Shown piece by piece: positions 4,979 to 47,971 of a DNA stretch of 64,000 nucleotides; positions within the stretch are counted from its first letter, which is position 1; each line of letters starts with the position of its first letter. This DNA is from Salipiger abyssi (GTDB lineage Bacteria > Pseudomonadota > Alphaproteobacteria > Rhodobacterales > Rhodobacteraceae): contig NZ_CP015093.1 in assembly GCF_001975705.1 (NCBI RefSeq), positions 4,038,501-4,102,500 of the forward strand, given 5' to 3'. The position numbers were made by a program, and so were the translations under genes. The notes under the pieces are model-generated. The model made no database searches and was not told where the DNA came from. It saw only the letters and a program-made list of their open reading frames with translations.

Positions 4979-6661
4979 TCACCCTCCCCCGAACAGCCGC
5001 TCCGCCTCTTCCGCGCTGTAGCGCCCCAGACGCACATCCTCCTCCACCAGCGCCCTGTCGCGCGCCGCCGGATCGCCGTAGCCGCCGCCGCCCGGCGTCT
5101 TCACACGCACGCGGTCGCCGGCACTTAACGCGATGTCCTGCGCCTTCGAGAGATGCTCCGGCGTGAAGGTCTCGTCATCACGGGTCACCGCGACCTCGTT
5201 CACCGCGCCATCGCCGCCGCCCAGCACCCCCTGCGGGCCAAAGCGCCCGTGATCCATCACGAAACTCGCCCGCGCCGTGCCCCTGAGGATCTCCACCTCG
5301 TAATCGAGCCCGAACCCGCCGCGATGCGCCCCCGCGCCGCCCGAGCCCTCGCGCAGCGCATAGCGGTGATAGAGCACCGGGAATTGCTGCTCCATGATCT
5401 CCACCGGCGGCGCCTTGGAGATGCCGATGGTCGAGCAGCCGTTGGAGATTCCGTCGCCCCCCGCATAGCCGCCATAACCGCCGCCCGAGATCTGATACAT
5501 CACATAGCTCTGCCCGGTCTCGGCCACCTCGCCGCCCAGTGCGAAATTGCCCGACGAGCCCGCCGGCGCCGCGCTCACCCTGTCGGGCAGCGCCGCGACC
5601 AGCGCGGCAAACACCGCCTCGGCGATGCGCTGGCTGACCTCCGCCGCGCAGCCCGAGACCGGGCGCGGGTATTGCGCATCGAGGAATGTGCCCTCGGGGC
5701 GGAGGATCTCCAGCGGCTCGAAGGCCCCGGCGCTGATCGGCACATCGGGAAAGATGTGGCGCATGGCGAGGTAGACCGAGCTGTGCGTGGTCGCCAGAAC
5801 CGAGTTCATCGGCCCGGCGCAGGGCGCGCTGGAGCCGGCGAAATCGAAGGTCAGCTTTTCCCCGTCAGCGGTGATCGCGAGCTTGATCTCCAGCGGCTCG
5901 TTCACCACCCCGTCGCTGTCGATATAGGCAATCGAGCGATAGACCCCGGGCGCAATCGCCGCGATCTGCGCCCGCATCTGCTCGGCGGCACGGCGGCGCA
6001 GCTCGGCGATGGCCTCGCGCACGGTGTCGTCGCCATAGCGATCGAGCAGCCGCGTCAGCCGCGCCTGCCCCACGTAAAGCGCCGCCGCCTGCGCCTTCAC
6101 ATCGCCGATGCGCTGATCGGCGACGCGGATATTGGAGCAGATGATGGCATAGATCTCGGGATCGAGCTCGCCCTGTTTGAAAAGCCGCACCGGCGGCAGC
6201 CGCAGCCCCTCCTGCTCCACCGCGGTGGCGCTGGCGGAGAACCCGCCCGGCACCGCGCCGCCGGTATCCGGCCAGTGGCCGGTATTGCTGAGCCAGCAGA
6301 AAATCTCGCCCCCGCGCCAGACCGGCATGGCAAAGCGCACATCCATGAGATGCGTGCCGCCGAGATAGGGGTCGTTGACGATATAGATATCGCCCGGCTG
6401 CGGCGCGGCGACCCGGCCCTCGGCGATCATCTCGATGATCTTGCGGGTGGAATGCTGCATGACCCCGACAAAGACCGGCAAGCCTTGCGAGCCCTGCGCG
6501 ATCAGGCTGCCATCCTCGGCGGCATAGATCCCGTCGGAACGGTCATTGGCCTCGGCGATCACCGGAGAGAACGCCGCGCGGGAAAAGCTCAGATCCATCT
6601 CGTCGCAGACCTGTTGCAGCCCGGACTGGATGACGGTGAGGGTGATGGGATCGAGACTCAT
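4979..6661 (-). CDS. hyuB: hydantoinase/oxoprolinase B-type subunit (HyuB)
   Basis: A 560-residue HyuB-family protein. HyuB pairs with HyuA to form ATP-dependent enzymes that open cyclic amides such as N-methylhydantoin or 5-oxoproline, or to form acetone-carboxylase-like complexes. Visible family blocks are the N-terminal DPITLTVIQSGL, the IVNDPYLGGTHLMDV motif near residue 90, and the Gly-rich GGGYGGYAGGDG segment. The start is the ATG at 6661 with AGGAGG just upstream. It is the last gene of the leftward arm, 136 bases after hyuA; that spacer holds a palindromic repeat and a small ORF. The substrate is unknown; the Mo hydroxylase upstream suggests a hydroxylated N-heterocycle or lactam. 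Confidence 0.9.
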   Translation of the reverse strand: MSLDPITLTVIQSGLQQVCDEMDLSFSRAAFSPVIAEANDRSDGIYAAEDGSLIAQGSQGLPVFVGVMQHSTRKIIEMIAEGRVAAPQPGDIYIVNDPYLGGTHLMDVRFAMPVWRGGEIFCWLSNTGHWPDTGGAVPGGFSASATAVEQEGLRLPPVRLFKQGELDPEIYAIICSNIRVADQRIGDVKAQAAALYVGQARLTRLLDRYGDDTVREAIAELRRRAAEQMRAQIAAIAPGVYRSIAYIDSDGVVNEPLEIKLAITADGEKLTFDFAGSSAPCAGPMNSVLATTHSSVYLAMRHIFPDVPISAGAFEPLEILRPEGTFLDAQYPRPVSGCAAEVSQRIAEAVFAALVAALPDRVSAAPAGSSGNFALGGEVAETGQSYVMYQISGGGYGGYAGGDGISNGCSTIGISKAPPVEIMEQQFPVLYHRYALREGSGGAGAHRGGFGLDYEVEILRGTARASFVMDHGRFGPQGVLGGGDGAVNEVAVTRDDETFTPEHLSKAQDIALSAGDRVRVKTPGGGGYGDPAARDRALVEEDVRLGRYSAEEAERLFGGG

Positions 6662-6801
6662 GACCGTTCCTCCTGTGGCACATGCATGCCTGCCTCCGGC
6701 GGGAGTATTTCCGGAAAGATGAAAGCACAGCGCCGCGCCCGGCTTTCATCTTTCTTCAAATACTCCACCGCTGCCATTGCCGCCCGCGCCACGCCGCTCA
6801 T
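6658..6801 (-). CDS. possible 47-residue linking ORF between hyuA and hyuB
   Basis: The ATG at 6801 overlaps the hyuA stop (ATGA at 6798-6801) and its stop overlaps the hyuB start (ATGA at 6658-6661), so it could carry ribosomes across the spacer. Its sequence is largely the translation of a palindromic intergenic repeat (6702-6766) and shows no domain. It may be a translational coupler or only an open frame by chance; I cannot tell which. Confidence 0.2.
   Translation of the reverse strand: MSGVARAAMAAVEYLKKDESRARRCAFIFPEILPPEAGMHVPQEERS
6702..6766. repeat. palindromic intergenic repeat, GGAGTATTT family
   Basis: Two 25-base arms (6702-6726 and 6742-6766) are inverted copies of each other with a three-base difference; each begins GGAGTATTT and ends GATGAAAGC. 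A single arm of the same family recurs at 21123-21147, and a diverged pair lies at 36976-37041. It could fold into a long hairpin in the mRNA between hyuA and hyuB and so alter their relative expression. Confidence 0.75.
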
Positions 6802-8855
6802 GAGCGCCCCGCGACGGTGACGATCAGATTGCCGTCGCCATCCTGGGCGGCGCGGTCGCCCGGTTCCAGCACCAGCGTGCAATCCATCTGCTCGACAATC
6901 GCCGGGCCGGTGAGGATGGCCTCGGGCGGCAGGTGATCGCGCCAATAGACCGGCGTGTCGGTCCAGCCCTCGAAATAGACCCTGCGCGTGCCGGTCTGCG
7001 CCTCGGCCAGCCTGGCCTTGCGGCCCGCCGCGTCGATCAGCGCAGAGAGGTCGATCTCGGGGCGGCGACCGATCACCGAGGTGTTGAGATTGACCAGCGC
7101 CGGGCGGATCTCGGGCAGGCGCACCTGGAAGCGGCGGAAATAGGCGTCTTCGAAAAGCGCTTGCAGATCGGCGCGCGAGGGCGTCGCGGAGGCGAGCGGC
7201 ACGCGCAGCAGATGGGTCTGGCCGATGAAGCGCATCTCGACCGAATGGGTCACCCGCAGCTCGGCGATCTCCACCCGCTCGCGGGCGATGGCGGCGCGGC
7301 CCTCCTCGGTCTGGCGGGCGAAGATCGCATGCACCTCGCCCATGTCGCAGGTATCGAGCGGCCTGTTCACCGTGGCGACGTAATCGTGGCGCAGATCGGC
7401 GACGATGCAGCCCAGAGCGTTGGTGATGCCCGGGCGCGCGGGCACCAGCACGCGTGGCACACCCAGCTCGCGGGCGATGGCGCAGGCATGCAGCGGCCCG
7501 GCGCCGCCGAAGGCGAAGAGCGCAAAATCGCGCGGGTCTTCGCCGAGCGAGACCGAGACCATGCGCACCGCATCGGCCATCTTCGCCGTGGCGATGCGCA
7601 GCACCGCCGCCGCCGACTCTGTCGCATCGAGCCCCAGCCGGTCGCCGAGCGTTTCGGCAAAGGCGGCGCGGATCGTCTCCAGCGACACCCCATCCGCGCC
7701 GGTGTTCAGCCGCTCCGGGTTCATCCGTCCCAGCAACATATTGGCATCCGAGATTGTCGGTTCCGTGCCGCCCTTGCCGTAGCAGATCGGCCCGGGCACC
7801 GAGCCGGCGCTCTCCGGCCCGACCTGCAACAGCCCCGCCGCATCGACCCGCGCAATGGAGCCGCCGCCGGCACCCACGGTGCGCACATCGACCATGGGCA
7901 CATGGATCGGCATGGCGTATTCGATCTCGATCTCATGGCTCACCGCCGGGTCGGCGCCGCGGATCATCGCCACATCGGTGGAGGTGCCGCCCATGTCATA
8001 GGTCAGCAGATCGGGGATGCCCGCGCGCCGCCCGGTATAGGCCGCCGCCATCACACCCGAGGCGGGGCCGGACATCACCGTCTTGGCGGCCTCCTCGGCC
8101 ACCACCCGTGCCGAGACCATGCCGCCATTGCCGTTCATCACCAGCAGGTCGCGCCCGTAACCGCGCTCCGACAGCCGGTCGGCCAGCCGCTCCACATAGC
8201 GGCGCAGCAGCGGCTGGACCGAGGCGTTGACCGCCGCCGTCACCCCGCGCTCGTATTCGCGACTCTCGGAGATCAGCGCGTGCCCGAGGGTGATATTGCC
8301 GTTGGGCCAGATCTCGCGGGCGATCTCTCCGGCGCGGATCTCATGCGCGGGGTTGGCATAGGCGTGCAGAAAATGGATCACCAGCGCCTCGCAGCCCTTT
8401 TCCACGAGTTCAGACAAGGCCACGCGCAGGGCGTCCTCGTCGAGCGGCAGATAGACGCTGCCATCGGCCAGCAGCCGCTCGGGGATCTCCAGCCGCAGAT
8501 CGCGCGGGATGATCGGACGGAACTGGCCGGTCATGCCATAGGCATGCGGCCTTGTGCGGCGACCGAGCTCCAGCACGTCGCGGAACCCTTGGGTGGTGAT
8601 CAGCCCGGTCTTGCAGAGCCGCCGCTCCAGCACCGCGTTGGTGGTGGTGGTGGTGCCGTGCACGATGAGATCCAGCGCGGCGGCATCGACCGAGGCCGCA
8701 TCCAGCGCCGCCAGCACCCCCGTCGCCTGATTGTCCAGCGTGGTCGGCACCTTGGCGAGTTTCACCGCCGAGGCGCGGCTGTCATAGAACACCAGATCGG
8801 TGAAGGTGCCGCCCACGTCGATCCCGGCAAAGGCGCCGGTCAGTTCGTCTGTCAT
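6798..8855 (-). CDS. hyuA: hydantoinase/oxoprolinase A-type subunit (HyuA)
   Basis: A 685-residue HyuA-family ATPase subunit with the actin-like (ASKHA) nucleotide fold. Visible motifs are phosphate-1 GIDVGGTFTDLVF at the N-terminus, phosphate-2 TYDMGGTSTDVAM in the middle, and the adenosine motif FAFGGAGPLHACAIAREL. With HyuB it should catalyse ATP-driven opening of a cyclic amide. The ATG at 8855 overlaps the stop of the molybdopterin hydroxylase gene by four bases (ATGA), showing translational coupling. I rejected the longer frame upstream because it lies inside the hydroxylase gene. The substrate is not determinable from sequence. Confidence 0.92.
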   Translation of the reverse strand: MTDELTGAFAGIDVGGTFTDLVFYDSRASAVKLAKVPTTLDNQATGVLAALDAASVDAAALDLIVHGTTTTTNAVLERRLCKTGLITTQGFRDVLELGRRTRPHAYGMTGQFRPIIPRDLRLEIPERLLADGSVYLPLDEDALRVALSELVEKGCEALVIHFLHAYANPAHEIRAGEIAREIWPNGNITLGHALISESREYERGVTAAVNASVQPLLRRYVERLADRLSERGYGRDLLVMNGNGGMVSARVVAEEAAKTVMSGPASGVMAAAYTGRRAGIPDLLTYDMGGTSTDVAMIRGADPAVSHEIEIEYAMPIHVPMVDVRTVGAGGGSIARVDAAGLLQVGPESAGSVPGPICYGKGGTEPTISDANMLLGRMNPERLNTGADGVSLETIRAAFAETLGDRLGLDATESAAAVLRIATAKMADAVRMVSVSLGEDPRDFALFAFGGAGPLHACAIARELGVPRVLVPARPGITNALGCIVADLRHDYVATVNRPLDTCDMGEVHAIFARQTEEGRAAIARERVEIAELRVTHSVEMRFIGQTHLLRVPLASATPSRADLQALFEDAYFRRFQVRLPEIRPALVNLNTSVIGRRPEIDLSALIDAAGRKARLAEAQTGTRRVYFEGWTDTPVYWRDHLPPEAILTGPAIVEQMDCTLVLEPGDRAAQDGDGNLIVTVAGRS

Positions 8856-11563
8856 GTGGTCCCCGACAGGATGGCCGCGCGGATCTTGTCCGGGGTCGCG
8901 GGCAGATGGTGGATGCGCGCGCCCGTGGCATGGGCGATGGCGTTCAGCACGGCGGGCGCGGTGGGGATCAGGCAATGCTCGCCCAGCCCCTTGGCGCCGT
9001 ACGGCCCGTGCGCATCGCCGCTCTCGACGATCAGCGTGTCGATAGGGGGCACGTCGCCGATGGTGGGGATGAGGTAATCGTGCAGGTTCTCGGTGCGGCC
9101 CGGCAGGAATTCCTCCATCAGCGCCATGCCGATGCCCTGCGCCACGCCGCCCTCGATCTGGCCCTCGACCAGCAGAGGGTTGATCGCCTTGCCGACGTCA
9201 TGCGCCGCCACGATGCGCCGCAGTTGCACGGTGCCGAGCGCCAGATCGACCTCCAGTTCGCAGATCTGCGCGGCGGTGCCGAAGACCGCATAAGGGTCGC
9301 CCTGCCCGTTCGGATCGAGCGGCGTGGTCGGCGGGTCGTAGCTTTCGATAGCCTCCAGCGCATAAGGCTCCCCCGGCGGCAGCTCGACCCTCACCGTTGT
9401 ACCCGCATCAGTAAGCAGGATGCCCTCGCCGGAGAAGGCGATCTCGGCGGCGTCCGAGACATTGCCCAGCCGCAGGATCTGCGCCCGGAGCGCCGCGCCG
9501 CAAAGCCGGGCGGCATTGCCGGAAATATAGGTCTGGCGGCTGGCGGAGGTCTTGCCCGCATCGGGGGTGATGTCGGTATCCGGCCCCACCCGCGTCACGG
9601 CAGTAACCGGCACGCCCAGGGCTTCGGCAAAGATCTGGGTGATCACGGTGTTGGAGCCCTGCCCGATATCCACCGCGCCCTGATGCAGCATCAGCGTCCC
9701 CTCGGGGGTGACGCCCGCGCGGATCGTCGAGGGGTTCGACATCGAGGTGTTGCCGCAGCCGTACCAGCCCGCCGCCACGCCGATGCCGCGCTTGCGGTCC
9801 TCGTGGCTGGCGTTGAACGCCGCCACCTCGGCTTGCGCCCTGTCCCAATGCGGTTTCAGCGCGTCGAGACAGGCGTCGATCCCCATGCCGGTCTCGAACA
9901 CCTGCCCGGTCACCGTCGGGTCGCCGTTCACCAGGCAGTTGCGGCGACGGAACTCCAGCCGGTCGAGCCCCAGCCTCTCGGCCAGCATGTCATAGAGCTG
10001 TTCCTGCGCCACTGCCGATTGCGGCACGCCGAAGCCGCGAAAGGCCCCGGCGGGCGCGGTATTGGTATGAATCCCCGCGCTTTTCGCCTGATAGTTCGGC
10101 GTCCGGTACGGCCCGCTGGCGTGGATCGGCACGCGGTTCGCCACGGTCGGCCCCCAGCTCGCATAGGCGCCGGTGTTGAACACCCCGTCAAAGCGCGCCC
10201 CCACGATACGGCCATCGGCATCGGCGCCGATCTCCATCACCATGTCCGAGGGGTGGCGTTTGGTCGAGGTCGAGATCGACTCGCTGCGGGTATAGGTGAT
10301 GCGCGCCGGGCGGTTCAGATGCCAGGCGGCCAGCGCCACATAGGGCTGCGCGGTGAGGTCCAGCTTGGAGCCGAAGCCGCCGCCCACCGCCGTGGGCAGG
10401 ATGCGCACCGCGTCGGGCGGCAGCCCCATGATCGTCGCGAGACCGTCGCGGTTCATATAGGGCGCCTGGGTGCAGCAGGAAATCTCGATGCGGTCGCCGA
10501 CCCGGCGGGCCGAGGCCGCCTCGGGTTCGATATAGCCATGCTCGATGAAGCCGGTGGAGAAGCGGCCCGAGACCACATGCGCGGCGCCTTTCAGCGCCGC
10601 ATCGGCATCGCCGCGTGCCACATAGCCCCGGCACATGACGTTTTCGGCGCGGCTCTCGTGCAGTTGCGCGGCGCTCTCGGCGCCCTCCGGGGTGAGGATC
10701 GCGGGCCGTTCCTCCCACGCGACCGGAAACGCCGCCATGGCGTCGAGCGCCTCCTGGGTGCCGACCACCGCCGCCACCGCCTCGCCCTTGAACCGCGCCT
10801 CGCCCTCGGCAAAGACCGGCTGGTCCTCGAAGCCGGGGATGACGCCGAAACGGTTCTCGCCGGGGATGTCGGCGGCGGTTAGGATCAGGTCGAGCCCGTT
10901 GGCCGCGCGAAACGCCTCAAGATCGCCGAAGCGGAACGCCGCCCGGTGATAGGGCGAGCGGATCACCCGGACCACCAGCGCATCAGTGGGCGCCACATCG
11001 TCGCCGAAGCGCTCTTCGCCCGAGAGTTTCGGCCCGCCGTCGAGCCGGGCGATGGGTGCGCCCACGCCGCCCTCGGTCAGCGGTTCGGTGCCGGACGCAT
11101 CGAGTACCGCGGCAACGATCTTGCGATACCCCGTACAGCGGCAGAGCACGCCGCCGAGCGCATCCGCGACGCTCTCTTCGCTCAGCGCCGCGCCGGAGCG
11201 CAGCAGCGCCACCGCCGAGACCATCATGCCCGGCGTGCAGATTCCACATTGCGCCGCCTGATGGCGCTGAAAGCTGCGCACGAGACGGCGCGCATGCGGA
11301 TCCTCCGCCGCGAGACCGGATTGCGTTTCCACGATATGGCCCTGCACCTGCCCGGCGGCCATCAGGCAGGCACAGACCGGCGCGCCGTCGATCAGAACCG
11401 TGCAGGCGCCGCAATCGCCGGCGTTGCAGCCGATCTTGACATCCTTCGCCCCGGCCACCTCGCGCAGCACCTCCGAGAGCCGGGCCGTGCTGTCGGCGGG
11501 CACGGTGATCTCGGCGCCGTTGAGGGTGAAGCCGATATGACCCTGCGGCGCATCAAGCGACAT
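8852..11563 (-). CDS. xanthine-dehydrogenase-family Mo hydroxylase, [2Fe-2S] and molybdopterin domains fused
   Basis: A 903-residue fusion of the small Fe-S subunit (about residues 1-170) with the large molybdopterin subunit (about 185-903). The first [2Fe-2S] site is CNAGDCGACTVLIDGAPVC and the second is QCGICTPGM plus VLCRCTGY. In the Mo domain I see GGGFGSKLDL, GAFRGFGVPQ, GQGSNTVITQ and the catalytic-glutamate block GAKGLGEHCLIP, so the enzyme looks intact. Such enzymes hydroxylate N-heteroaromatic rings next to nitrogen. The start is the ATG at 11563 with an AGGAGG site at 11570-11575; it overlaps the FAD-subunit gene by 11 bases and hyuA by four. The separate FAD subunit would complete the electron path. 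Confidence 0.93.
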   Translation of the reverse strand: MSLDAPQGHIGFTLNGAEITVPADSTARLSEVLREVAGAKDVKIGCNAGDCGACTVLIDGAPVCACLMAAGQVQGHIVETQSGLAAEDPHARRLVRSFQRHQAAQCGICTPGMMVSAVALLRSGAALSEESVADALGGVLCRCTGYRKIVAAVLDASGTEPLTEGGVGAPIARLDGGPKLSGEERFGDDVAPTDALVVRVIRSPYHRAAFRFGDLEAFRAANGLDLILTAADIPGENRFGVIPGFEDQPVFAEGEARFKGEAVAAVVGTQEALDAMAAFPVAWEERPAILTPEGAESAAQLHESRAENVMCRGYVARGDADAALKGAAHVVSGRFSTGFIEHGYIEPEAASARRVGDRIEISCCTQAPYMNRDGLATIMGLPPDAVRILPTAVGGGFGSKLDLTAQPYVALAAWHLNRPARITYTRSESISTSTKRHPSDMVMEIGADADGRIVGARFDGVFNTGAYASWGPTVANRVPIHASGPYRTPNYQAKSAGIHTNTAPAGAFRGFGVPQSAVAQEQLYDMLAERLGLDRLEFRRRNCLVNGDPTVTGQVFETGMGIDACLDALKPHWDRAQAEVAAFNASHEDRKRGIGVAAGWYGCGNTSMSNPSTIRAGVTPEGTLMLHQGAVDIGQGSNTVITQIFAEALGVPVTAVTRVGPDTDITPDAGKTSASRQTYISGNAARLCGAALRAQILRLGNVSDAAEIAFSGEGILLTDAGTTVRVELPPGEPYALEAIESYDPPTTPLDPNGQGDPYAVFGTAAQICELEVDLALGTVQLRRIVAAHDVGKAINPLLVEGQIEGGVAQGIGMALMEEFLPGRTENLHDYLIPTIGDVPPIDTLIVESGDAHGPYGAKGLGEHCLIPTAPAVLNAIAHATGARIHHLPATPDKIRAAILSGTT

Positions 11564-12394
11564 GAGCGGCCTCCTGTTCCATGGCTGTGGTAATGGCGCG
11601 GGCGACGAGCGTGCGCACGGCGTCGTCACGATACACCGCAGGCGCCCGGACATCGCCAATGGGCGTCAGCTCTGAAAACGGGTATTCACTCACGATTTCA
11701 GTTAGTTGAAAAACATTCTTCCCGTAAAGCATTGACTCGAGAGCAGGCAATCGCTGCGCCACCGGTGCGCAGGCGCCCACGGCGATGCGGGCGCGGGTGA
11801 TGCGGCTCGCCTCGGCCTCGATCACCGCCGCGACCATGGCGATGGAGATCACAAGATATTTCCTCGCACCCAACTTGAGGAATGCGCTGCATCCTCCTGC
11901 ATTCGTGATAAAAATCTCCGCCAGGATCTCCCCTGCCTCCAGCAGCGTCGCGCGCGGACCGGTGATGAATTCCGCAAGCGGCAGGCGCCTTGTGCCCGCC
12001 GCAGAGGCCAGCCCGACCTCGGCATCAAGCGCCAGCAGCGTCGGCACGCCATCCGCCGCCGGAGAGGCGTTGCAGAGATTGCCCGCCACCGTGCCCGCGT
12101 TCTGGATCTGCACCGATCCGACCTCGCGCGCGGCGGCTTTCAGCCCATCGAAAAGCGGCGGCAGATCGGCGCGCAGCAGCGCGCTCCATGTGGTCGCCCC
12201 GCCGATGCGCCAGCCCTCCGCCTCGCGCGTCACGCCGACGAGTTCCGCCACCCCGGTCAGGTCGACCAGCTCGGCCGGCGGCACCCCGTCGCGCAGCGCC
12301 GGATAGAGATCCGTCCCCCGCCCAGCGCCTGCGCGCCGCCCCTGCCCATCAGCGCCAGAGCGGCGTCGAGCGTGTCGGGTCGGTGCAGGGGCAT
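11553..12394 (-). pseudogene. FAD-binding subunit of the Mo hydroxylase, apparent one-base frameshift
   Basis: First gene of the leftward arm, an FAD-binding middle subunit (CoxM/CutM type) of about 280 residues. The start is the ATG at 12394 with AGGAGA upstream (12401-12406), giving MPLHRPDTLDAALALM. The frame is lost at a C5 run (12315-12319 on the plus strand). One added base restores GGGTDLYPALRDG, which contains the GGTDL FAD-binding motif expected there, and joins onto the rest: a second FAD motif (GTVAGNLCNASPAAD) and a normal C-terminus. No other damage is visible. The same kind of lesion occurs in ftsY in this window, so a homopolymer sequencing error is more likely than a real pseudogene. 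As written, only a protein lacking the first part could be made. Confidence 0.85.
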
Positions 12395-12430
12395 GGCGTC
12401 TCTCCTGAGGTCGCTGGCTCTGATGATTTC

Positions 12431-12448
12431 ATTCGCACACAAACGAAG
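12431..12448. promoter_or_regulatory. operator-like site 1 in the divergent catabolic promoter region
   Basis: ATTCGCACACAAACGAAG matches the perfect palindrome at 12602-12619 at 14 of 18 positions and keeps the TTCG...CGAA arms. It lies 37 bp upstream of the FAD-subunit start, where a repressor would control the leftward arm. Spacing and symmetry fit a GntR- or LacI-like dimer; the protein is not known. Confidence 0.6.
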
Positions 12449-12601
12449 ATGCAGGCAGCCTAGGGCGGCTTTGCGATTTCTGTCAATCCGCATCCGGGGA
12501 CTGCCAGACCACACGTAACGGATTGCTGAAAAACTCATCACAGGTCTCGACACACCCCATCTGCCATATCGCGCCGCTTGACAGAAGAGCGGATGGCATG
12601 C

Positions 12602-12619
12602 GTTCGTATACAAACGAAC
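12602..12619. promoter_or_regulatory. operator-like site 2, perfect 6-6-6 palindrome
   Basis: GTTCGT-ATACAA-ACGAAC: perfect six-base arms around a six-base centre, 36 bp before the proposed TTG start of the rightward arm. With site 1 it brackets the divergent promoters, so one regulator probably controls both arms. Confidence 0.65.
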
Positions 12620-12654
12620 TTGCCGCAGATCAGCCAGCAGCCGGAGCCCGCGAC

Positions 12655-14166
12655 TTGAGCACACCGACGTCCCCCGCGAAACGCAGCCCCTCGGACCGCC
12701 CCGACAAGATCCGCTGCGATGCCTGCCCGGTGATGTGCTACATCGCCGAGGGCCGCGCCGGCGCCTGCGACCGCTATGCCAACGAGGGCGGCGAACTGGT
12801 CCGGCTCGACCCGCTGACCATTCTGGAAAACCGCGAGGACGTGGCGCTGGTGCCCTTTCTCGACCGCGAATGGGACGGCGATATCGTCTCGGGCGACGAG
12901 GCTTTCATCACCGCCGTGGGCTCCGGCACGACCTATCCCGATTACAAGCCCGCGCCGTTCATCGTCGCCTCCAAAGCGGCGGATGCCGACATGATCACCG
13001 TGGTGACCGAGGGGATCTTTTCCTATTGCGGCGCCAAGGTGAAGATCGACACCGACCGGCATCTGGGCAGCGAATGCGCCTGGGTGCGCGCCGAGGGTGA
13101 GGTGATCGGCCATGTCACCACCTCGGAATACGGCAGCCAGATGCTGAGCCTCGGCGGGGTCAACCACCTCACCGGCGGCTCCAAGAAGGAGGGGCGCGCG
13201 ACCTGCTCGGCCCTGCTGGCGCTGTGTAATGGCGAAAGCGTCGCGCTGAGCATCGACAATGGCGCCGAGCTGGAGATCGCCGCCGGACAGGCGCCTGTGG
13301 TCAATGGCCAGCGCGAGGAGCGCATGCGCGTCGGCTGCGGCTCGGCCACGGTGGGCATGTTCGCGGCGCAGTGGCAGGGGCTGGTCGACGAGGTTGTCGT
13401 GGTCGACGATCATATCACCGGCGTGATGTCGGAACATCAGGCGGGCAAGGTCATCGGCTGGCCCGCCACCGGGATCAAGATCAACGGGCGGCGCTCGACG
13501 CCGGGGCGCTATTTCCAGGTGGCCGAGCCCGGCACCGGCTGGGGCGGCACCGATCTCTCCGATCCGCTGGAGATTCTCGGCGCGTGGAAACCCGGCATCG
13601 CCTGGCCCGGACTGTCGCTGCTCATGGTCTCGACCACCGGCGAGCACGCCGCCTATTTCGAGCTGAACGAGGATCTCGTGCCGGTCGAGAAAGAGATGCC
13701 CGAGCGGCTGCTGCCTTCGGTCCGGCGGATCGAGGATAATTGCGAGCCGTCGCTCGCCTCGGTGCTGTTCATGGCGGGCGCCGGCGGCTCGCTGCGCTCG
13801 GGCGTGACCGAGAACCCGGTGAGCCTCACGCGCTCGGTGCAGTCGCGGCTGACCCGGGTGACCTGCGGCGGCGCGCCGGTGATGATCTGGCCCGGCGGCG
13901 GCATCACCTTCATGTCGGACGTGACGCAGATGCCGAAAAACGCCTTTGGCTACGTGCCCACCCCGGCGCTTGTGGCACCCATCGAGTTCACCATGCGGCG
14001 CGAGGATTATCAGGCGCTTGGCGGGCATATGGACTATGTGATGCCGCTGGAGGAGGCGCTGAAGGGCGTCACCGGGCGGCAGAGCGATCACCGGCTCTCG
14101 GGCCGCCGCGCCGAGACTCGCAAATCGGGCAGCCCCTGGCCTGTCAGCCGGGAGCCCGCAAAATGA
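12655..14166 (+). CDS. 6-hydroxynicotinate reductase-like Fe-S protein
   Basis: A 503-residue protein resembling the 6-hydroxynicotinate reductase (Hnr) of anaerobic nicotinate degraders. The N-terminus has a C-X2-C-X3-C-X9-C cluster (Cys21, 24, 28, 38; CDACPVMC then GACDRY) that should bind an Fe-S centre. The middle contains YCGAKVKIDTD and a Gly-rich block (RVGCGSATVGMFA). In Eubacterium barkeri the relative reduces the pyridine ring after Mo-dependent hydroxylation, which matches a Mo hydroxylase in the divergent arm. I prefer the TTG at 12655 (CGGAG at 12642-12646) because the ATG at 12598 would put the operator inside the gene. It overlaps the next gene by ATGA. The actual substrate is unproven. 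Confidence 0.8.
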   Translation: MSTPTSPAKRSPSDRPDKIRCDACPVMCYIAEGRAGACDRYANEGGELVRLDPLTILENREDVALVPFLDREWDGDIVSGDEAFITAVGSGTTYPDYKPAPFIVASKAADADMITVVTEGIFSYCGAKVKIDTDRHLGSECAWVRAEGEVIGHVTTSEYGSQMLSLGGVNHLTGGSKKEGRATCSALLALCNGESVALSIDNGAELEIAAGQAPVVNGQREERMRVGCGSATVGMFAAQWQGLVDEVVVVDDHITGVMSEHQAGKVIGWPATGIKINGRRSTPGRYFQVAEPGTGWGGTDLSDPLEILGAWKPGIAWPGLSLLMVSTTGEHAAYFELNEDLVPVEKEMPERLLPSVRRIEDNCEPSLASVLFMAGAGGSLRSGVTENPVSLTRSVQSRLTRVTCGGAPVMIWPGGGITFMSDVTQMPKNAFGYVPTPALVAPIEFTMRREDYQALGGHMDYVMPLEEALKGVTGRQSDHRLSGRRAETRKSGSPWPVSREPAK

Positions 14167-15026
14167 GCTTTCGCGAGGCCCCCATCGTGCGGATGGCCCG
14201 TGACGGGCGGATGCGGCTGACCCATGGCCCGATCGACGTGATCGTGACGGCAGAAGGCCCCGAAAGCGCGGCCAAAGCCGCCCTGCGGCGCGCGCATGAG
14301 GCCTTTGAACCGGTGCTCCACGATCTCTGCGCCGAGCTGCCCCGGCTGCGCGCGGCGCATGGTCCCGCGCCGCGTGGCGCCGTGGCGCTGCGGATGCAGA
14401 GCGCCACCGATCTCTTCGCGCCCGCCTTCGTGACACCGATGGCGGCAGTGGCGGGATCGGTGGCCGATCATATCCTGGCGGCGACGCTGGTGCCCGGTCA
14501 CGGACTCGCCCGCGCGCACGTGAACAATGGTGGCGACATCGCGCTCTGGACCGGATCCGCGCCGCTGCGGCTGGCGATCTGCGAAGACCCGCAGACCGGC
14601 GCGCCCGGCGCCCGCGCCAGCATCGCGCCCGGCGATGGCATCGGCGGCGTGGCTACCAGCGGCTGGCGCGGGCGTTCGCACTCGCTGGGCATTGCCGACG
14701 CGGTCACCGTGCTGGCGCCCGACGCCGCGCGGGCCGATGCCGCCGCCACGCTGATCGCCAACGTGGTGGACCTGCCCGGCCACCCCGCCATCACCCGGAT
14801 GCCCGCAAGCACCCTCGCCCCCGACAGCGATCTGGGCGACCGGCCTGTGACCACCGGCGTGGGCGCGCTCACCGCCCGCGAGGCGCGGCGCGCGCTGGAC
14901 GCGGGCCGCGTGCTGGCCGAAGACTATATCCGCCGGGGCCTGATCCGCGCCGCCTGCCTTGCGCTGGCGGGCGAGCGGGTGGCCCTCGGCACCGCCATTG
15001 CCAAGGAGGAGCCCGCCCATGCCTGA
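14163..15026 (+). CDS. UPF0280 family protein (ApbE-like fold)
   Basis: A 287-residue UPF0280 protein, related to the ApbE flavin-transferase superfamily. Visible signatures are HVNNGGDIALW near the middle and the later RSHSLGIADAVTVLAPDA segment, both ApbE-like. No reaction is established for UPF0280. The start is an ATG at 14163 overlapping the stop of the Hnr-like gene (ATGA), so the two are translationally coupled. The gene overlaps the next one by eight bases. The position suggests it either matures the Fe-S/flavin reductase or acts on the same intermediate; this is inference. Confidence 0.8.
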   Translation: MSFREAPIVRMARDGRMRLTHGPIDVIVTAEGPESAAKAALRRAHEAFEPVLHDLCAELPRLRAAHGPAPRGAVALRMQSATDLFAPAFVTPMAAVAGSVADHILAATLVPGHGLARAHVNNGGDIALWTGSAPLRLAICEDPQTGAPGARASIAPGDGIGGVATSGWRGRSHSLGIADAVTVLAPDAARADAAATLIANVVDLPGHPAITRMPASTLAPDSDLGDRPVTTGVGALTAREARRALDAGRVLAEDYIRRGLIRAACLALAGERVALGTAIAKEEPAHA

Positions 15027-15603
15027 GGTCAAGATCCGCAAGACGCTGGTCCAGGTCGAAACCGTCTATCACGAGGGCGGCCCCGCCCCCGAAACGCCGC
15101 AAAAACGCGCCGCCGCGCTGGCGGTGATCGAGAACCCCTATGCCGGGCGCTATGTGGACGACATCGCCCCCTTCATGAAAGACCTCGAACCGCTGGGGGC
15201 GCAGATGGCGCAGCAGCTCATCGACGCGCTTGGCGGCGATGCGGCGGCGGTCGAGGGCTATGGCAAGGGCGCCATTGTCGGCGTGAACGGCGAGATCGAG
15301 CATGGCGCGCTCTGGCATGTGCCGGGCGGCTACGCGATGCGCGACGCCATCGAGAAGAGCAAGGCCATCGTGCCCTCGGCCAAGAAGGTCGGCGCGGCGG
15401 GCACGCGGCTCGACGTGCCGGTGACCCATACCAACGCCTCTTACGTGCGCTCGCATTACGATGCGGTGGAGGTGGGTATTCCCGACGCGCCGCGCCCGGA
15501 CGAGATCGTGCTGGTGCTGGTGATGACCACCGGCGGGCGCATCCACGCCCGCATGGGCGGTCTGACGAAAGAAGACGTCAAGGGCGAGGACGGGTTGCGG
15601 TGA
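15019..15603 (+). CDS. AA_synth (PF06684-type) family protein, copy 1
   Basis: A 194-residue protein of the family named 'amino acid synthesis' in annotation, whose biochemical role is not established. It begins PEVKIRKTLVQVETVYHEGG and contains VIENPYAGRYVDD and EGYGKGAIVG, blocks shared with the next gene. The start is an ATG at 15019 with a strong AAGGAGGA site at 15003-15010. The stop overlaps the GTG start of copy 2. Two adjacent paralogues in one operon suggest a hetero-oligomer or two successive steps. Confidence 0.8.
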   Translation: MPEVKIRKTLVQVETVYHEGGPAPETPQKRAAALAVIENPYAGRYVDDIAPFMKDLEPLGAQMAQQLIDALGGDAAAVEGYGKGAIVGVNGEIEHGALWHVPGGYAMRDAIEKSKAIVPSAKKVGAAGTRLDVPVTHTNASYVRSHYDAVEVGIPDAPRPDEIVLVLVMTTGGRIHARMGGLTKEDVKGEDGLR

Positions 15604-16178
15604 AGCTGCGCAAGATCATCACGCAGGTCGAGGAGACCCGCTCGGAGATGGGCCGGACGGTCACGCCGCCCGCCCGCCGGGCGCTCGCGGCGGCGGTGAT
15701 CGAAAATCCCTTTGCCGGGCGCTACGAGGACGACCTGTCGGAACTGATCGAGACCGGCGCCGCGCTTGGAACCTTGCTGGGCGAGGAAGCGCTGGCGGCG
15801 CTCGGCTGCGGCGCGCAGGCGGTCGAGGGCTATGGCAAGGCCGCGCTGGTGGGCGAGCTGGGCGAGTTGGAACACGCCGCAGCACTCCTGCACCCCAGGC
15901 TCGGCGCGCCGCTGCGCGCGGTGATCGGCGGCGGCAAGGCGCTGGTGCCCTCCTCCAAGGCCATCGGGCGTGCAGGCGAGAGTCTCGACATTCCGCTGGG
16001 CCACAAGGATGCCGCCTATGTGCGCAGTCATTTCGACGGCATGCGCCTGCGCATCGCCGACGTCCCGCGCCCGCGCGAGATCGTTGTGGCGGTGGCGTTG
16101 CAGCAGACCGGCCGCCCGCTGCCCCGCGTCGGCGGCTTGCAGCATCGCGAGGTGACGGGCGAGGACGGGTTGCGATGA
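15600..16178 (+). CDS. AA_synth (PF06684-type) family protein, copy 2
   Basis: A 192-residue paralogue of the preceding gene. Shared landmarks are LRKIITQVEETRSEMG, VIENPFAGRYEDD, EGYGKAALVGE, DAAYVRSHFD and the C-terminal EDGLR. It starts with GTG at 15600, overlapping the upstream TGA at 15601-15603, so its translation is probably coupled. The pair are clearly diverged rather than a recent duplication. Function unknown; the context is N-heterocycle or cyclic amide breakdown. Confidence 0.8.
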   Translation: MKLRKIITQVEETRSEMGRTVTPPARRALAAAVIENPFAGRYEDDLSELIETGAALGTLLGEEALAALGCGAQAVEGYGKAALVGELGELEHAAALLHPRLGAPLRAVIGGGKALVPSSKAIGRAGESLDIPLGHKDAAYVRSHFDGMRLRIADVPRPREIVVAVALQQTGRPLPRVGGLQHREVTGEDGLR

Positions 16179-16401
16179 CCCTGACCGCGCCGCATAGCGC
16201 TCCGCGACAGGCCGGAGGGGCGCCTTCGGGTCCGGCCCGTCTTGCCTGTCCGGTAACAATCCCCCAATCTCGAGACGACAGACCGTTCCCGGCCCGCGTC
16301 GCCGCCCGCCCGGCGGCGATTGCAGATCCAGACACCCGGCGCAAAGACCGGATCACATCGGGGGCCGCAGCGCCCCTCAGCCAACAGGAGAGTGACACGC
16401 G

Positions 16402-17610: not shown

Positions 17611-17628
17611 GCCCGGCCCAGCCATGAG

Positions 17629-17649
17629 GCCCCGGACCACGTCCGGGGC
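17629..17649. other. GC hairpin after the binding-protein gene
   Basis: Perfect 9-base arms GCCCCGGAC/GTCCGGGGC with a CAC loop, 19 bases after the binding-protein stop and without a T-run. A second short palindrome (CCCGGG...CCCGGG, 17682-17698) follows. Hairpins at this point in ABC operons often stabilise the binding-protein message relative to the membrane genes; that role is inferred here. Confidence 0.5.
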
Positions 17650-17765
17650 GGGTTGGGACGGCTCCGACCGATGCCCCCCGCCCCGGGCCTGACCCGGGCC
17701 TCCACCGGAGCCGCCCGCGCGGCGGCCCCGCAAGCCTCTCTCCCGATACCAGCCAGAGGACCGTC

Positions 17766-19622
17766 ATGGCCTTCTTCTTCGCCCAGTTCCTCACCGGGCT
17801 TGCCAATGCCGCCGCGCTGTTCCTCGTGGCCTCCGGCCTGTCGCTGATCTTCGGCGTCACCCGGATCGTGAATTTCGCGCATGGCTCCTTCTACATGCTC
17901 GGCGCCTTCATCGGTGTCGTGCTGATGGATCTGCTGCCCGGCCATGTCGGGTTCTGGGGCGCCATCCTGCTCACCGGACTTGCGGTGGGCCTCATCGGCG
18001 CCGTGGTCGAGATGGTGGTGCTGCGCCCGATCTACCGCGCGCCGGAGCTGTTCCAGCTTGTCGCCACCTTCGGGGTGATCCTCGTCATCCAGGATCTGGC
18101 GCTGATGATCTGGGGCGCCGAAGACCGTCTTGGCCCCCGCGCCCCCGGCCTGCGCGGCGTCTGGCGGATCTTTGACGAGCCGGTGCCGAAATACGATATC
18201 GTGCTGATCGCCATCACGCCGGTCATCCTCTTCGCGCTCTGGTATCTCATCGCCCGCACAAGGCTGGGCGTGCTGGTACGCGCCGCCACGCAGGACCGCG
18301 AGATGGTCGGCGCGCTCGGCGTCAATCAGGCCTGGCTCTTCACCGGGGTCTTTGCGCTCGGCTCGGCGCTGGCCGGGCTTGGCGGCGCGCTGCAACTGCC
18401 CAAGGGCGGCGCCGATCTGCTGATGGATTTCAATATCATCGGCGCGGTCTTTGTCGTGGTGGTCATCGGCGGCATGGGCTCCCTGCCCGGGGCCTTCATC
18501 GCCTCGGTGCTGATCTCGGTGCTGAACGTGTTCGGTGTCACCTACCTGCCGCAATCGACGCTGGTGCTGATGTATGTGGTCATGGCGGTGGTGCTGATCG
18601 TGCGCCCCTACGGGCTTCTGGGCCGCGAGGAGGTGGCGGGCGAACATGGTCAGGTCGGCGCGCCGGAAACCCCGATCCGCCCCTACGGGCGCAAGGGCAT
18701 GGCACTGGTCGCGGTGCTGCTCGCCCTGCTGGCGCTGCTGCCCGTCTTTGCCGAGCCCTTCGTGCTGACGCTGGTGGTCGACATGGTGGTCTTTGCGCTT
18801 TTCGCCGCCAGTCTGCATTTCATCCTCGGCTCCGGCGGGCTGGTCAGCTTTGGCCATGCGGCGTTTTTCGGCGGCGGCGCCTATGCAGCGGCGCTGCTGG
18901 TCTATCACACCGGCACGCCGATGGAGCTCGCCTTTCTCTTCGCGCCGCTCGCCGCCGGGCTGCTGGCGCTGGGGATCGGCTGGTTCTGCATCCGCCTCAC
19001 CGGCGTCTATTTCGCCATGCTGACGCTGGCCTTTTCGCAGCTCGTCTGGAGCCTCGCCTTCCAGTGGCGCTCGGTCACCCGTGGCGATGACGGGCTGGTC
19101 AATATCTGGCCCGCCGAGTGGCTCTCGGGCGACATAGCCTATTACTATTTCGCGCTGGCCTTCGGCATCGGCGGAATTCTCGTCCTGCGCCATGTCATCC
19201 ACGCACCCTTCGGCTATGCGCTGCGCGCCGGGCGCGACAGCCCGCGCCAGGCCGAGGCCACCGGCATCGACGTCAAGCGCGTGCAATTCGCGGCCTTCGC
19301 GCTGGCGGGCGCCATGGCGGGGCTTGCGGGCGGGATCTTCGTCTTTTCCAAGGGCTCGGTCTTCCCGACGGAGCTGGAGATCGCCAAGAGCTTCGACGCG
19401 CTGATCGTGGTGTTTCTCGGCGGGGTGAAGACGCTGGCGGGGGGCGTCGTGGGCGCCAGCTTCATGACCGTGGTCGAGGACTGGCTGGTGCGGCTGGAAT
19501 ACTGGCGGCTGCTGCTGGGGCTGGTGATCATCGCGGTGGTGATCGTGATGCCCGAAGGCATCGTCGGCACGCTGCGCACGCTCTGGCGGCGCCTGCGCCA
19601 TAGCGATGAGGAGGCGGTCTGA
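17766..19622 (+). CDS. fused ABC permease (LivH-LivM type)
   Basis: A 618-residue membrane protein in which the two permeases of a branched-chain-type importer are fused. Residues 1-290 are LivH-like (GLSLIFGVTRIVNFAHGSFYML at the start and VIGGMGSLPGAF near 235). Residues about 305-610 are LivM-like (GSGGLVSFGHAAFFGGGAY and GGVKTLAGGVVGA). A hydrophilic linker joins the halves near residues 285-305. There is no internal stop, so the fusion is real at sequence level. The start is the ATG at 17766. The stop shares one base with the next ATG. Confidence 0.93.
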   Translation: MAFFFAQFLTGLANAAALFLVASGLSLIFGVTRIVNFAHGSFYMLGAFIGVVLMDLLPGHVGFWGAILLTGLAVGLIGAVVEMVVLRPIYRAPELFQLVATFGVILVIQDLALMIWGAEDRLGPRAPGLRGVWRIFDEPVPKYDIVLIAITPVILFALWYLIARTRLGVLVRAATQDREMVGALGVNQAWLFTGVFALGSALAGLGGALQLPKGGADLLMDFNIIGAVFVVVVIGGMGSLPGAFIASVLISVLNVFGVTYLPQSTLVLMYVVMAVVLIVRPYGLLGREEVAGEHGQVGAPETPIRPYGRKGMALVAVLLALLALLPVFAEPFVLTLVVDMVVFALFAASLHFILGSGGLVSFGHAAFFGGGAYAAALLVYHTGTPMELAFLFAPLAAGLLALGIGWFCIRLTGVYFAMLTLAFSQLVWSLAFQWRSVTRGDDGLVNIWPAEWLSGDIAYYYFALAFGIGGILVLRHVIHAPFGYALRAGRDSPRQAEATGIDVKRVQFAAFALAGAMAGLAGGIFVFSKGSVFPTELEIAKSFDALIVVFLGGVKTLAGGVVGASFMTVVEDWLVRLEYWRLLLGLVIIAVVIVMPEGIVGTLRTLWRRLRHSDEEAV

Positions 19623-20392
19623 TGTCCGAGATCCTGCGTGTCGAGAACCTCAAGAAAAGCTATGACGGCTTTCTCGCTGTCAACGATGTGTCCTTCGCCG
19701 TGGCAAAGGGCGAGCTGAAGGCGCTGATCGGCCCCAATGGCGCCGGCAAGTCCACCTGTTTCAACATGCTCATGGGGCAGCTCAGACCCACCGCCGGGGA
19801 AGTCTATCTCGACGGCGAGCGCATCACCGGCAAGCGCCCGCGCGAGATCTGGCGGCGCGGCGTCGGGCGTACCTTCCAGATCACCGGCACCTATCAGTCG
19901 ATGAGCGTGATCGAGAATGTGCAGATGGCGCTGATGAGCCACCACAAGCGGATCTTTTCCATCGCGCCGCGCGCCTGGAAGCTCTACCGCGACGAGGCGA
20001 TGGGCTTTCTCGACACGGTGTCGATGGCCGATCAGGCCGACCGGCCCTGTTCGGTGCTGGCCTATGGCGATCTCAAGCGGCTGGAGCTGGCGATTGCGCT
20101 CTGTCACCGCCCGCGGCTCTTGCTGATGGACGAGCCCACGGCGGGCATGGCGCCCTCGGCGCGGATCGAACTCATGCAGCTCGTGGCCGATATCGTGCGG
20201 GATCAGGGCGTCTCGGTGCTCTTTACCGAGCATGACATGGACGTGGTCTTTGCCCATGCCCATCACATCATGGTGCTGAACCGGGGCGAGCTGATCGCCG
20301 ACGGCTCTGCGACCGAGGTGCGCAACAACCCGCAGGTGCAAGAGGTCTATCTGGGCGGCGGCACGCTCTTCAAGGAGGACGCAAATGCTTAG
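19622..20392 (+). CDS. ABC transporter ATP-binding protein, LivG type
   Basis: A 256-residue ATPase. Walker A is GPNGAGKST, the signature is an atypical VLAYGDLKRLELA in place of LSGGQ, which is common in LivG proteins, and Walker B is LLLMDEPTAGMAP. It would power the fused permease together with the LivF-type ATPase. It overlaps the permease stop by one base and the next ATPase by eight bases, indicating tight coupling. Confidence 0.95.
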   Translation: MSEILRVENLKKSYDGFLAVNDVSFAVAKGELKALIGPNGAGKSTCFNMLMGQLRPTAGEVYLDGERITGKRPREIWRRGVGRTFQITGTYQSMSVIENVQMALMSHHKRIFSIAPRAWKLYRDEAMGFLDTVSMADQADRPCSVLAYGDLKRLELAIALCHRPRLLLMDEPTAGMAPSARIELMQLVADIVRDQGVSVLFTEHDMDVVFAHAHHIMVLNRGELIADGSATEVRNNPQVQEVYLGGGTLFKEDANA

Positions 20393-21086
20393 CGTCGAGC
20401 GCATCCACAGCTATTACGGCAAGGCGCATATCCTCAACGATCTCAGCTTCGAGGTGCGGCGCGGCGAGGTGGTCGCGCTTCTGGGCCGCAATGGCGCCGG
20501 CAAATCCACCACGATGAAATCGGTGATGCAGCTTGTGCGCCCGCGTCAGGGACAGGTGACGTTTCAGGGCCGCGATCTGGTGGGCGAGCCCGCCTTCCGC
20601 GTCGCAAAATGCGGCATCGGCTACGTGCCCGAGGACCGGCGCATCTTCACCGATCTCACGGTCTTGGAAAACCTTGAGGTCGGTCGCCAGCCAAAGCGCG
20701 AGGACGCGCCGTTCTGGACCCAGGAGCAGCTTTTCGAGATCTTCCCCAACCTCTACGAGCGCCGCGCCAACCGGGGCAAGCACATGTCGGGCGGCGAGCA
20801 GCAGATGCTGACCATCGCGCGCACGCTGATGGGCAACCCGGCGCTGCTGCTGCTCGACGAGCCTTCGGAGGGCATCGCGCCGGTGATCGTCGAGCAGATG
20901 GCCGAGACCATCAAGACGCTGAAGCAAGAGGGGCTGACGGTGATGATCTCCGAGCAGAACCTGCATTTCGCCCGTGCGGTGGCGGATCGCGCGATCATCA
21001 TCGAGGGCGGGGAGAAGAAGTTCGACGGCAGTTTCGCCGAGCTGGAGGCGCATCCGGAGATCCGCGATGCCTATCTGTCGGTCTGA
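20385..21086 (+). CDS. ABC transporter ATP-binding protein, LivF type
   Basis: A 233-residue ATPase with Walker A GRNGAGKSTT, signature MSGGEQQMLTIARTL and Walker B LLLLDEPSEGIAP. It forms the second nucleotide-binding subunit of the importer encoded just upstream. It is the last transport gene; 158 bases with a single GGAGTATTT repeat arm separate it from a MarR regulator. Confidence 0.95.
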   Translation: MLSVERIHSYYGKAHILNDLSFEVRRGEVVALLGRNGAGKSTTMKSVMQLVRPRQGQVTFQGRDLVGEPAFRVAKCGIGYVPEDRRIFTDLTVLENLEVGRQPKREDAPFWTQEQLFEIFPNLYERRANRGKHMSGGEQQMLTIARTLMGNPALLLLDEPSEGIAPVIVEQMAETIKTLKQEGLTVMISEQNLHFARAVADRAIIIEGGEKKFDGSFAELEAHPEIRDAYLSV

Positions 21087-21122
21087 CAGCCCGGCGGCAT
21101 CGCCCGGCCACGGGGCTGTGTC

Positions 21123-21147
21123 GGAGTATTTGGGAGAAAGATGAAAG
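21123..21147. repeat. single GGAGTATTT-family repeat arm
   Basis: A lone copy of the 25-base repeat arm found as an inverted pair at 6702-6766. It sits between the LivF-type gene and the MarR gene. Confidence 0.6.
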
Positions 21148-21244
21148 GGCGCGGGCCGCGCTCTGCCCGCAAGGCGGCACTGGCGATGCCGCATTGCCTT
21201 TCGCAGGAAATGACGTTACGTCCGTTCCCCGGAAAAGGAGAGCC

Positions 21245-21697
21245 TTGCCTTTGGACGATATCCGCAAAGCCCGCACCAGCGCCGAACACGGCTATCTGCT
21301 GGACGAACAGATCGGATTCCTGTTGCGCAAGGCCTATCAGCGCAATTCCACGCTTTTTGCCGAGCTGGTGCCGGGCAAGCTGACGCCGACGCAGTTCTCG
21401 GTGATGCACCGGCTGGCCGAGGACGGCCCGATGTCGCAGAACCGGCTGGGCCGCTCGGTGGCGATGGACGGGGCGACGACCAAGGGCGTGGTCGACCGGC
21501 TGATCGCGCGCGGGCTGCTCAGCACCGCCCCCGACCCGGACGACCGGCGGCGGCATCTGGTCTCGCTGACGGCAGAGGGCGTGACGCTGATCGACGAGGC
21601 GGTGGAGGCGGCGATCGAGGTCAGCGCCGAAACGCTGGCGCCTTTGCGCGAACGCGAGCGGGAGACGCTGCTGCGGCTTTTGAAGAAGCTGGGATAG
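21245..21697 (+). CDS. MarR-family transcriptional regulator
   Basis: A 150-residue winged-helix regulator. The MarR fold is visible as LTPTQFSVMHRLAEDG, then the recognition region MSQNRLGRSVAMDGATTKGVVDRL, then the wing DPDDRRRHLVSLT. The start is ambiguous between TTG codons at 21245 and 21251; AAGGAG lies at 21235-21240. It follows the importer on the same strand and may regulate the locus, but it could also be independent. MarR proteins of this kind usually respond to small aromatic or heterocyclic ligands. Confidence 0.85.
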   Translation: MPLDDIRKARTSAEHGYLLDEQIGFLLRKAYQRNSTLFAELVPGKLTPTQFSVMHRLAEDGPMSQNRLGRSVAMDGATTKGVVDRLIARGLLSTAPDPDDRRRHLVSLTAEGVTLIDEAVEAAIEVSAETLAPLRERERETLLRLLKKLG

Positions 21698-28773: not shown

Positions 28774-28788
28774 CTTAAAAATACCTGA

Positions 28789-47570: not shown

Positions 47571-47575
47571 CCGAC

Positions 47576-47968: not shown

Positions 47969-47971
47969 GCC

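What the first reader, a model, noticed from the sequence alone, without database searches (positions are those of the whole stretch)
4979..21697. Uncharacterised N-heterocycle or cyclic-amide catabolic locus
Sequence shows, in two divergent arms, a Mo hydroxylase with FAD subunit, HyuA-HyuB, an Hnr-like Fe-S reductase, UPF0280, two AA_synth paralogues, a complete ABC importer and a MarR gene, with ATGA or short overlaps at many junctions. Known families: in the E. barkeri nicotinate pathway a Mo hydroxylase and Hnr act in sequence and an enamidase then opens the ring. Here HyuA-HyuB, an ATP-dependent cyclic-amide hydrolase, could replace the enamidase. The role of UPF0280 and the AA_synth pair is unknown, so this may be an undescribed route.
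Basis: partly seen in the sequence, partly recalled or inferred. Interest (0 to 1): 0.78.

Follow-up and report, generated by a model that had tools for sequence, protein, structure and literature searches.

The report
Nicotinate-type locus with swapped ring-opener
A bacterium related to Salipiger carries a vitamin-B3-type (nicotinate) breakdown gene cluster in which the usual ring-opening enzyme seems to have been replaced by an unrelated ATP-driven enzyme pair, and a protein of unknown role in the same cluster looks like a flavin-attaching enzyme.

The parts
4979..6661 (-). hyuB (Hydantoinase_B, PF02538), 560 aa
   Evidence: 528.6 bits; orthologs (76% identity or more) in the same 57 genomes as HyuA
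6798..8855 (-). hyuA (Hydant_A_N, Hydantoinase_A, Hydant_A_C); ATG at 8855 overlaps the Mo hydroxylase stop
   Evidence: NCBIfam best CapA 496.5 bits, below its cut-off of 1000
8852..11563 (-). fused [2Fe-2S] + molybdopterin hydroxylase (nicotinate-dehydrogenase-like)
   Evidence: 3hrd (E. barkeri nicotinate dehydrogenase) L 239.4 + M 202.2 + S 109.1 bits, against 345.6 for the best single chain
11553..12394 (-). FAD subunit; open frame only 11553-12284, N-terminal ~27 residues in another frame, break near 12314-12317
   Evidence: 3hrd_C 77.6 bits, 2w3r_A 79.5
12395..12597 (.). divergent intergenic region (presumed control region of both arms)
   Evidence: sequence
12598..14166 (+). hnr: 6-hydroxynicotinate-reductase-like Fe-S protein, 522 aa; 8 invariant cysteines in 61 rows
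   Evidence: start codon uncertain
14163..15026 (+). UPF0280 (ApbE-like fold), candidate flavin transferase of Hnr
15019..15603 (+). AA_synth (PF06684) paralogue 1
   Evidence: 246.5 bits
15600..16178 (+). AA_synth (PF06684) paralogue 2
   Evidence: 2qtp, 260.1 bits
16402..17610 (+). periplasmic substrate-binding protein (Peripla_BP_6)
17766..19622 (+). two BPD_transp_2 permease stretches fused in one gene
19622..20392 (+). LivG/UrtD-type ATPase
20385..21086 (+). LivF/UrtE-type ATPase
21194..21697 (+). MarR-family regulator (start codon uncertain)

Best explanation
The locus imports and degrades nicotinate, or a very similar pyridine carboxylate, by the reductive (THON) route. Proposed steps: the Mo hydroxylase makes the 6-oxo (6-hydroxy) acid; Hnr, an Fe-S flavoenzyme, reduces the ring to the ene-lactam 1,4,5,6-tetrahydro-6-oxonicotinate (THON); HyuA-HyuB hydrolyses that lactam with ATP, and the resulting enamine falls to 2-formylglutarate and ammonia, the reaction that enamidase does without ATP elsewhere; carbon then leaves through glutarate and glutaryl-CoA. 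UPF0280 attaches Hnr's covalent flavin. SHOWN by computation: gene content, conservation of the Hnr-UPF0280-AA_synth core, mutual exclusion of HyuAB and enamidase, ApbE fold of UPF0280 (model). INFERRED: substrate, each reaction, direction of the swap, flavinylation, and everything about AA_synth.
For: Exclusion: of 100 Hnr+ genomes among 296 of the window's family, enamidase only 42, HyuA only 57, both 0, neither 1; of 196 Hnr- genomes, 2 and 2 distant hits. The exception G024 has an Hnr match with 5 stops and a 61%-identical HyuB match with 7 stops, so it looks like a decayed HyuAB locus. HyuA and HyuB orthologs occupy the same 57 genomes. Six changes of opener on the Hnr tree, all forced by starred branches of a quick tree. 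HyuA lies within 20 kb of Hnr in 40 of 43 genomes with both on one contig (57 in all); enamidase in 28 of 33 (42 in all). The alternative gene (L044 copy) matches E. barkeri enamidase 2vun, E 6.7e-104. HyuAB also occurs with the NicB-like (name recalled) Mo protein type of the Azorhizobium/Rhodopseudomonas loci (L010, L011). Own genome has no enamidase at E<=0.001 (control G001 rings). Glutaryl-CoA dehydrogenase and a succinate-glutarate-CoA-transferase-like gene lie side by side in the own genome, and such genes lie near Hnr in 4 and 3 of 80 loci. UPF0280.
Against: No activity is shown. The FAD subunit is frame-broken here, so this copy may be inactive or misread. Substrate identity is by homology; a Rieske-type oxygenase in 27 of 80 relatives hints at N- or O-methylated substrates in part of the family. 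The best NCBIfam match of the Mo protein is a selenium-dependent xanthine dehydrogenase (550.6 bits, cut-off 830.45). Direct comparison with E. barkeri Hnr was not possible. Genome searches scored only the first few candidates per genome (at most 6), so absences rest on those. H173, which I take for the counterpart of an ApbE histidine, is kept in only 36 of 62 UPF0280 rows. The Hnr model is weak (pLDDT 76.2) and gave no flavin-site evidence. G111's enamidase-like hit is only 46% identical. The own CoA-transferase scores 507.9 bits, below the family cut-off of 750.
Confidence: 0.6

Rival explanations
1. Same logic, other substrate: the locus serves an N-methylated pyridine carboxylate (trigonelline, or homarine), so HyuAB opens an N-methyl ene-lactam and releases methylamine.
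For: Rieske-type (VanA_C) oxygenase in 27 of 80 relatives and in the same-genus genome G092; many record titles are of marine groups; N-methylglutamate dehydrogenase is reported to take part in homarine catabolism (passage in PMC13390433); Ruegeria pomeroyi, which I recall as the source of SPO0826/2qtp (AA_synth), draws down homarine (PMC12817926 passage).
Against: Nearest solved relative of the Mo hydroxylase, summed over chains, is nicotinate dehydrogenase; enamidase orthologs sit in the matching place; the window itself lacks the Rieske gene (own genome's best hit 32% identical). The homarine gene paper was not held, so its operon was not compared.
Confidence: 0.25
2. HyuAB performs another, unlinked reaction (hydantoin, oxoproline, caprolactam) and the exclusion with enamidase is an accident of ancestry.
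For: HyuAB families are broad, with further candidates in many genomes; opener type follows clades in part (42 of 57 HyuA rows form one clade).
Against: 0 of 100 with both, six changes on the Hnr tree, only 2 distant HyuA hits in 196 Hnr- genomes; not a caprolactamase by NCBIfam cut-off.
Confidence: 0.08
3. A purine (xanthine dehydrogenase) or hydantoin locus with an unrelated Hnr-like gene.
For: Several xanthine-dehydrogenase models match the Mo protein and its FAD subunit.
Against: All 21 NCBIfam models listed for the Mo protein score below their cut-offs; 3hrd chains sum higher than xanthine dehydrogenases; Hnr keeps UPF0280 in 76 and AA_synth in 72 of 80 relatives.
Confidence: 0.03

Closest known systems
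Reductive nicotinate (THON) pathway of Eubacterium barkeri (ndh-hnr-ena); Alhapel 2006, recalled, not held
   Same: Mo hydroxylase related to 3hrd; Hnr family (a Bradyrhizobiaceae relative is 42% identical to E. barkeri Hnr per PMC3511419)
   Different: no enamidase found; HyuAB instead; fused Mo subunits; downstream route inferred as glutarate, not methyleneglutarate
Azorhizobium/Bradyrhizobiaceae nicotinate cluster (PMC3511419, section 13 read)
   Same: Hnr, ABC importer, conserved proteins of unknown function, proposed glutarate route; in L069, L065, L073 and L080 also UPF0280, AA_synth, NicB-like hydroxylase and enamidase
   Different: the window has an XDH-type fused hydroxylase with a separate FAD subunit, and HyuAB instead of enamidase
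ATP-dependent HyuA/HyuB hydrolases (caprolactamase, N-methylhydantoinase, 5-oxoprolinase)
   Same: all HyuA and HyuB domains; an ATP-dependent lactam or imide opener is the family chemistry (recalled)
   Different: below the caprolactamase cut-offs; tied to Hnr genomes
ApbE/Ftp flavin transferases
Trigonelline pathway TgnF and HcdD (PF06684 proteins; PMC7913881 passage)
   Same: AA_synth relatives beside a pyridine- or coumarin-catabolic pathway
   Different: two copies here; TgnF is said there to stimulate TgnE, and no such effect was seen for HcdD

Membership tests
Reductive nicotinate (THON) pathway | Mo-dependent nicotinate 6-hydroxylase | tested here: inconclusive
   homology to 3hrd chains, sum of 550.7 bits; FAD subunit frame-broken; activity not testable
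Reductive nicotinate (THON) pathway | 6-hydroxynicotinate reductase (Hnr) gene | tested here: met
   family member by database labels, 66% identical to the Azorhizobium oxalatiphilum locus protein; no direct comparison with E. barkeri Hnr
Reductive nicotinate (THON) pathway | enamidase | tested here: not met
   none in own genome at E<=0.001, control rings; HyuAB instead, so filed as a variant, not a member
HyuA/HyuB hydrolases | HyuA N, central and C domains plus HyuB | tested here: met
Caprolactamase (NF050156, NF050157) | score over curated cut-off | tested here: not met
   496.5 and 299.1 bits against 1000 each
ApbE superfamily | ApbE fold | tested here: met
ApbE superfamily | metal-site D-x3-T (recalled from ApbE/Ftp work) | tested here: met
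   D192 62 of 62, T196 59 of 62 plus 2 Ser and 1 X; same stretch aligned with one of two own-genome ApbE hits; not checked by superposition
ApbE superfamily | PF02424 profile match | tested here: not met
   no hit
ApbE superfamily | covalent flavin transfer | not testable with these tools
   needs biochemistry
AA_synth (PF06684) | profile match | tested here: met
   246.5 and 227.8 bits

The most novel reading that the evidence does not exclude
An ATP-driven HyuAB lactamase and the ATP-free metalloenzyme enamidase have repeatedly replaced each other at the ring-opening step of the reductive pyridine-carboxylate pathway, and UPF0280 is the founding member of a second class of flavin transferases, dedicated to the covalent flavin of Hnr, with the AA_synth pair acting as a tautomerase or stabiliser on the shared intermediates.
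Probability: 0.3. Interest if true: 0.78.

Novelty: new variant of a known kind. Interest (0 to 1): 0.62.

Why it matters
About a third of the sampled genomes of this family (100 of 296) carry Hnr, and 57 of those 100 use the HyuAB version, so annotation by enamidase alone would miss more than half. It is a clean case of replacement by an unrelated enzyme with an energy cost (ATP), it gives these HyuAB orthologs a testable substrate, and it gives UPF0280, which no paper in the searched library names (term UPF0280), a concrete function to test.

Tried and rejected

Thresholds: E<=1e-50 for Hnr and enamidase, E<=1e-180 for HyuA and E<=1e-150 for HyuB were set with the searches. In Hnr+ genomes HyuA hits are 63-100% identical (a second copy in G135 51%); enamidase hits are 68-86% except G111 (46%) and G036 (71%, a fragment at a contig end). 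HyuB orthologs were taken by hand at 76% identity or more; 43-44% paralogues, a 59% second copy in G135 and the broken 61% match in G024 were left out. G024 was left out of the tree. Gene presence near Hnr used bit-score floors that I chose; contig ends cause some misses and the two AA_synth queries cross-match. The Fisher p of 1.5e-27 ignores ancestry; the tree (quick method, SH-aLRT only) gives 6 changes. The 10 genomes are partly the same as genomes in the family sample (equal contig lengths, e.g. L007/L090 and L010/L094). The tool gives the family only as code f1; Rhodobacteraceae is my reading from Salipiger-type relatives.

Literature: ten searches ran, seen as listings; passages of nine papers (PMC12934955, PMC2954203, PMC13390433, PMC9723723, PMC12817926, PMC9038784, PMC7913881, PMC3511419, PMC8478523) and one full section (PMC3511419 section 13). 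None of the searches paired HyuA, HyuB or hydantoinase with nicotinate, so I do not claim that the HyuAB swap is unpublished, only that I did not see it; subscription journals are mostly not held.

Full report
Observation. The window lies in a genome of estimated completeness 100 (9 contigs; G000:C5:4038501-4102500) close to Salipiger: its UPF0280 is 95% identical to a Salipiger abyssi protein. Two corrections. Homologs of the FAD subunit align in one frame up to about 12317 and, for their first ~27 residues, in another frame (some alignments run on a little), so the gene is broken in this assembly. And the window has no Rieske-type oxygenase gene between AA_synth2 and the binding protein, where 19 of 80 relatives have one; the same-genus genome G092 also has one. 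The own genome's best hit to it is 32% identical.

Conserved core. A scan with Hnr kept the best 80 loci of a capped list. By tblastn, UPF0280 is near Hnr in 76 of 80, each AA_synth query hits in 72 of 80 (the two cross-match), the Mo hydroxylase in 70 of 80 (some distant), the FAD subunit in 59, and HyuA/HyuB in only 14/13 (contig ends blur these counts). Neighbour clustering showed in 28 loci an amidohydrolase whose L044 copy matches E. barkeri enamidase 2vun at E 6.7e-104. On the Hnr tree enamidase rows (28) and HyuAB rows (15, window included) never coincide; 38 rows had neither within the fetched DNA. The HyuAB set includes a separate Chelativorans row (L078).

Whole-genome test. Of 296 genomes of the window's family (code f1, Rhodobacteraceae by my reading; 295 genera), Hnr is in 100, enamidase in 44 and HyuA in 59. 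Cross-tabulated: of the 100 Hnr+ genomes 42 have enamidase only, 57 HyuA only, 0 both, 1 neither; of the 196 Hnr- genomes 2 have enamidase-like (40-41% identical) and 2 HyuA-like (45-46%) hits. Only the first few candidates per genome (at most 6) were scored, so absences rest on those. The exception, G024, has an Hnr match with five stops and a HyuB match with seven. HyuB orthologs (76% or more, chosen by hand) occupy the same 57 genomes as HyuA. HyuA lies within 20 kb of Hnr in 40 of the 43 genomes where both share a contig, enamidase in 28 of 33. A tree of 99 Hnr rows needs 6 changes of opener, all forced by starred branches (quick tree; 42 of the 57 HyuA rows form one clade). In 10 genomes reached through HyuAB loci, partly the same as in the sample, no enamidase was found apart from one weak fragment (E 1.8e-5), while the control genome rang. 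This is the main result: HyuAB and enamidase behave as alternatives for one step of the Hnr pathway.

What the pathway is. The fused Mo protein matches the three Mo/Fe-S chains of E. barkeri nicotinate dehydrogenase (3hrd) with 239.4 + 202.2 + 109.1 bits; the best single chain, aldehyde oxidoreductase 1sij, has 345.6, and 4-hydroxybenzoyl-CoA reductase 292.3 + 106.4. Its best NCBIfam match, selenium-dependent xanthine dehydrogenase, is below its cut-off (550.6 of 830.45). For the FAD subunit xanthine dehydrogenase 2w3r (79.5) and 3hrd_C (77.6) tie. Eight loci (Rhodopseudomonas, Azorhizobium, Afipia, Bosea and others) carry a Mo protein of the type profiled in L069, Mo-cofactor domains plus cytochrome c domains; I call it NicB-like from recall. 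Two of the eight, L010 and L011, are HyuAB loci; in the family sample it stands beside HyuAB in 2 of 56, one of which (L094) has the contig length of L010. A published account (PMC3511419, section 13 read) assigns the Azorhizobium/Bradyrhizobiaceae cluster to nicotinate via THON and glutarate, with a transporter and two conserved unknown proteins, and gives 42% identity of one such Hnr to E. barkeri Hnr. A succinate-glutarate-CoA-transferase-like gene (3 of 80 loci; the L069 copy 607.1 bits, below the cut-off of 750) and glutaryl-CoA dehydrogenase (4 of 80) lie near Hnr in some relatives; in the own genome both lie next to each other on another contig (73% identical dehydrogenase; 507.9 bits, below the cut-off). 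The route is therefore known in outline; the opener differs.

AA_synth. AA_synth genes follow the core with either opener (hits in 50 of 56 and 40 of 42 loci for each query, which cross-match). The fold is chorismate-mutase-like with unknown function (PMC2954203 passages); a relative, TgnF, is said to stimulate TgnE in trigonelline degradation, and no such effect was seen for HcdD (PMC7913881 passage). A role as tautomerase or helper on ring-opened or reduced intermediates is a guess.

Verdict. Chemistry and substrate are untested, and the copy in this strain may be impaired by the FAD frame break.

Noticed in passing
window 11553-12394: FAD subunit frame break near 12314-12317; relatives L003-L007 have longer open frames.
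   Followed up: partly
window 28306-29832: Low-GC insert (46% at 28001-30000) after lepA with a GmrSD_N gene matching PADLOC NsnA and PD-T4-2_A profiles and a HEPN-like gene beside it: possible defence cassette.
   Followed up: partly
window 45706-49399: Ectoine-type cluster: acetyltransferase, class-III aminotransferase, ectoine synthase, amino-acid kinase.
   Followed up: no
L023, L025, L026, L040, L041, L045: Aldehyde ferredoxin oxidoreductase family gene (one copy, L045, profiled) near Hnr; could supply reduced ferredoxin for Hnr from the ring-opening aldehyde.
   Followed up: no
L004:13617-14687 and 26 other loci: VanA-like Rieske oxygenase (L004 copy profiled) in 27 of 80 loci, in 19 directly between AA_synth and the binding protein; hints at methylated substrates.
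   Followed up: partly
L008: Contig labelled Enemella evansiae (Actinomycetota) nests inside the Roseobacter-type HyuAB clade, and a source names its protein Ponticoccus gilvus; label doubtful.
   Followed up: no
L186 (G024): Decayed locus: Hnr match with five stops; on another contig a HyuB match with seven.
   Followed up: partly
L192 (G000:C7:99000-118500): Glutaryl-CoA dehydrogenase and a succinate-glutarate-CoA-transferase-like gene next to ethanolamine ammonia-lyase genes.
   Followed up: partly
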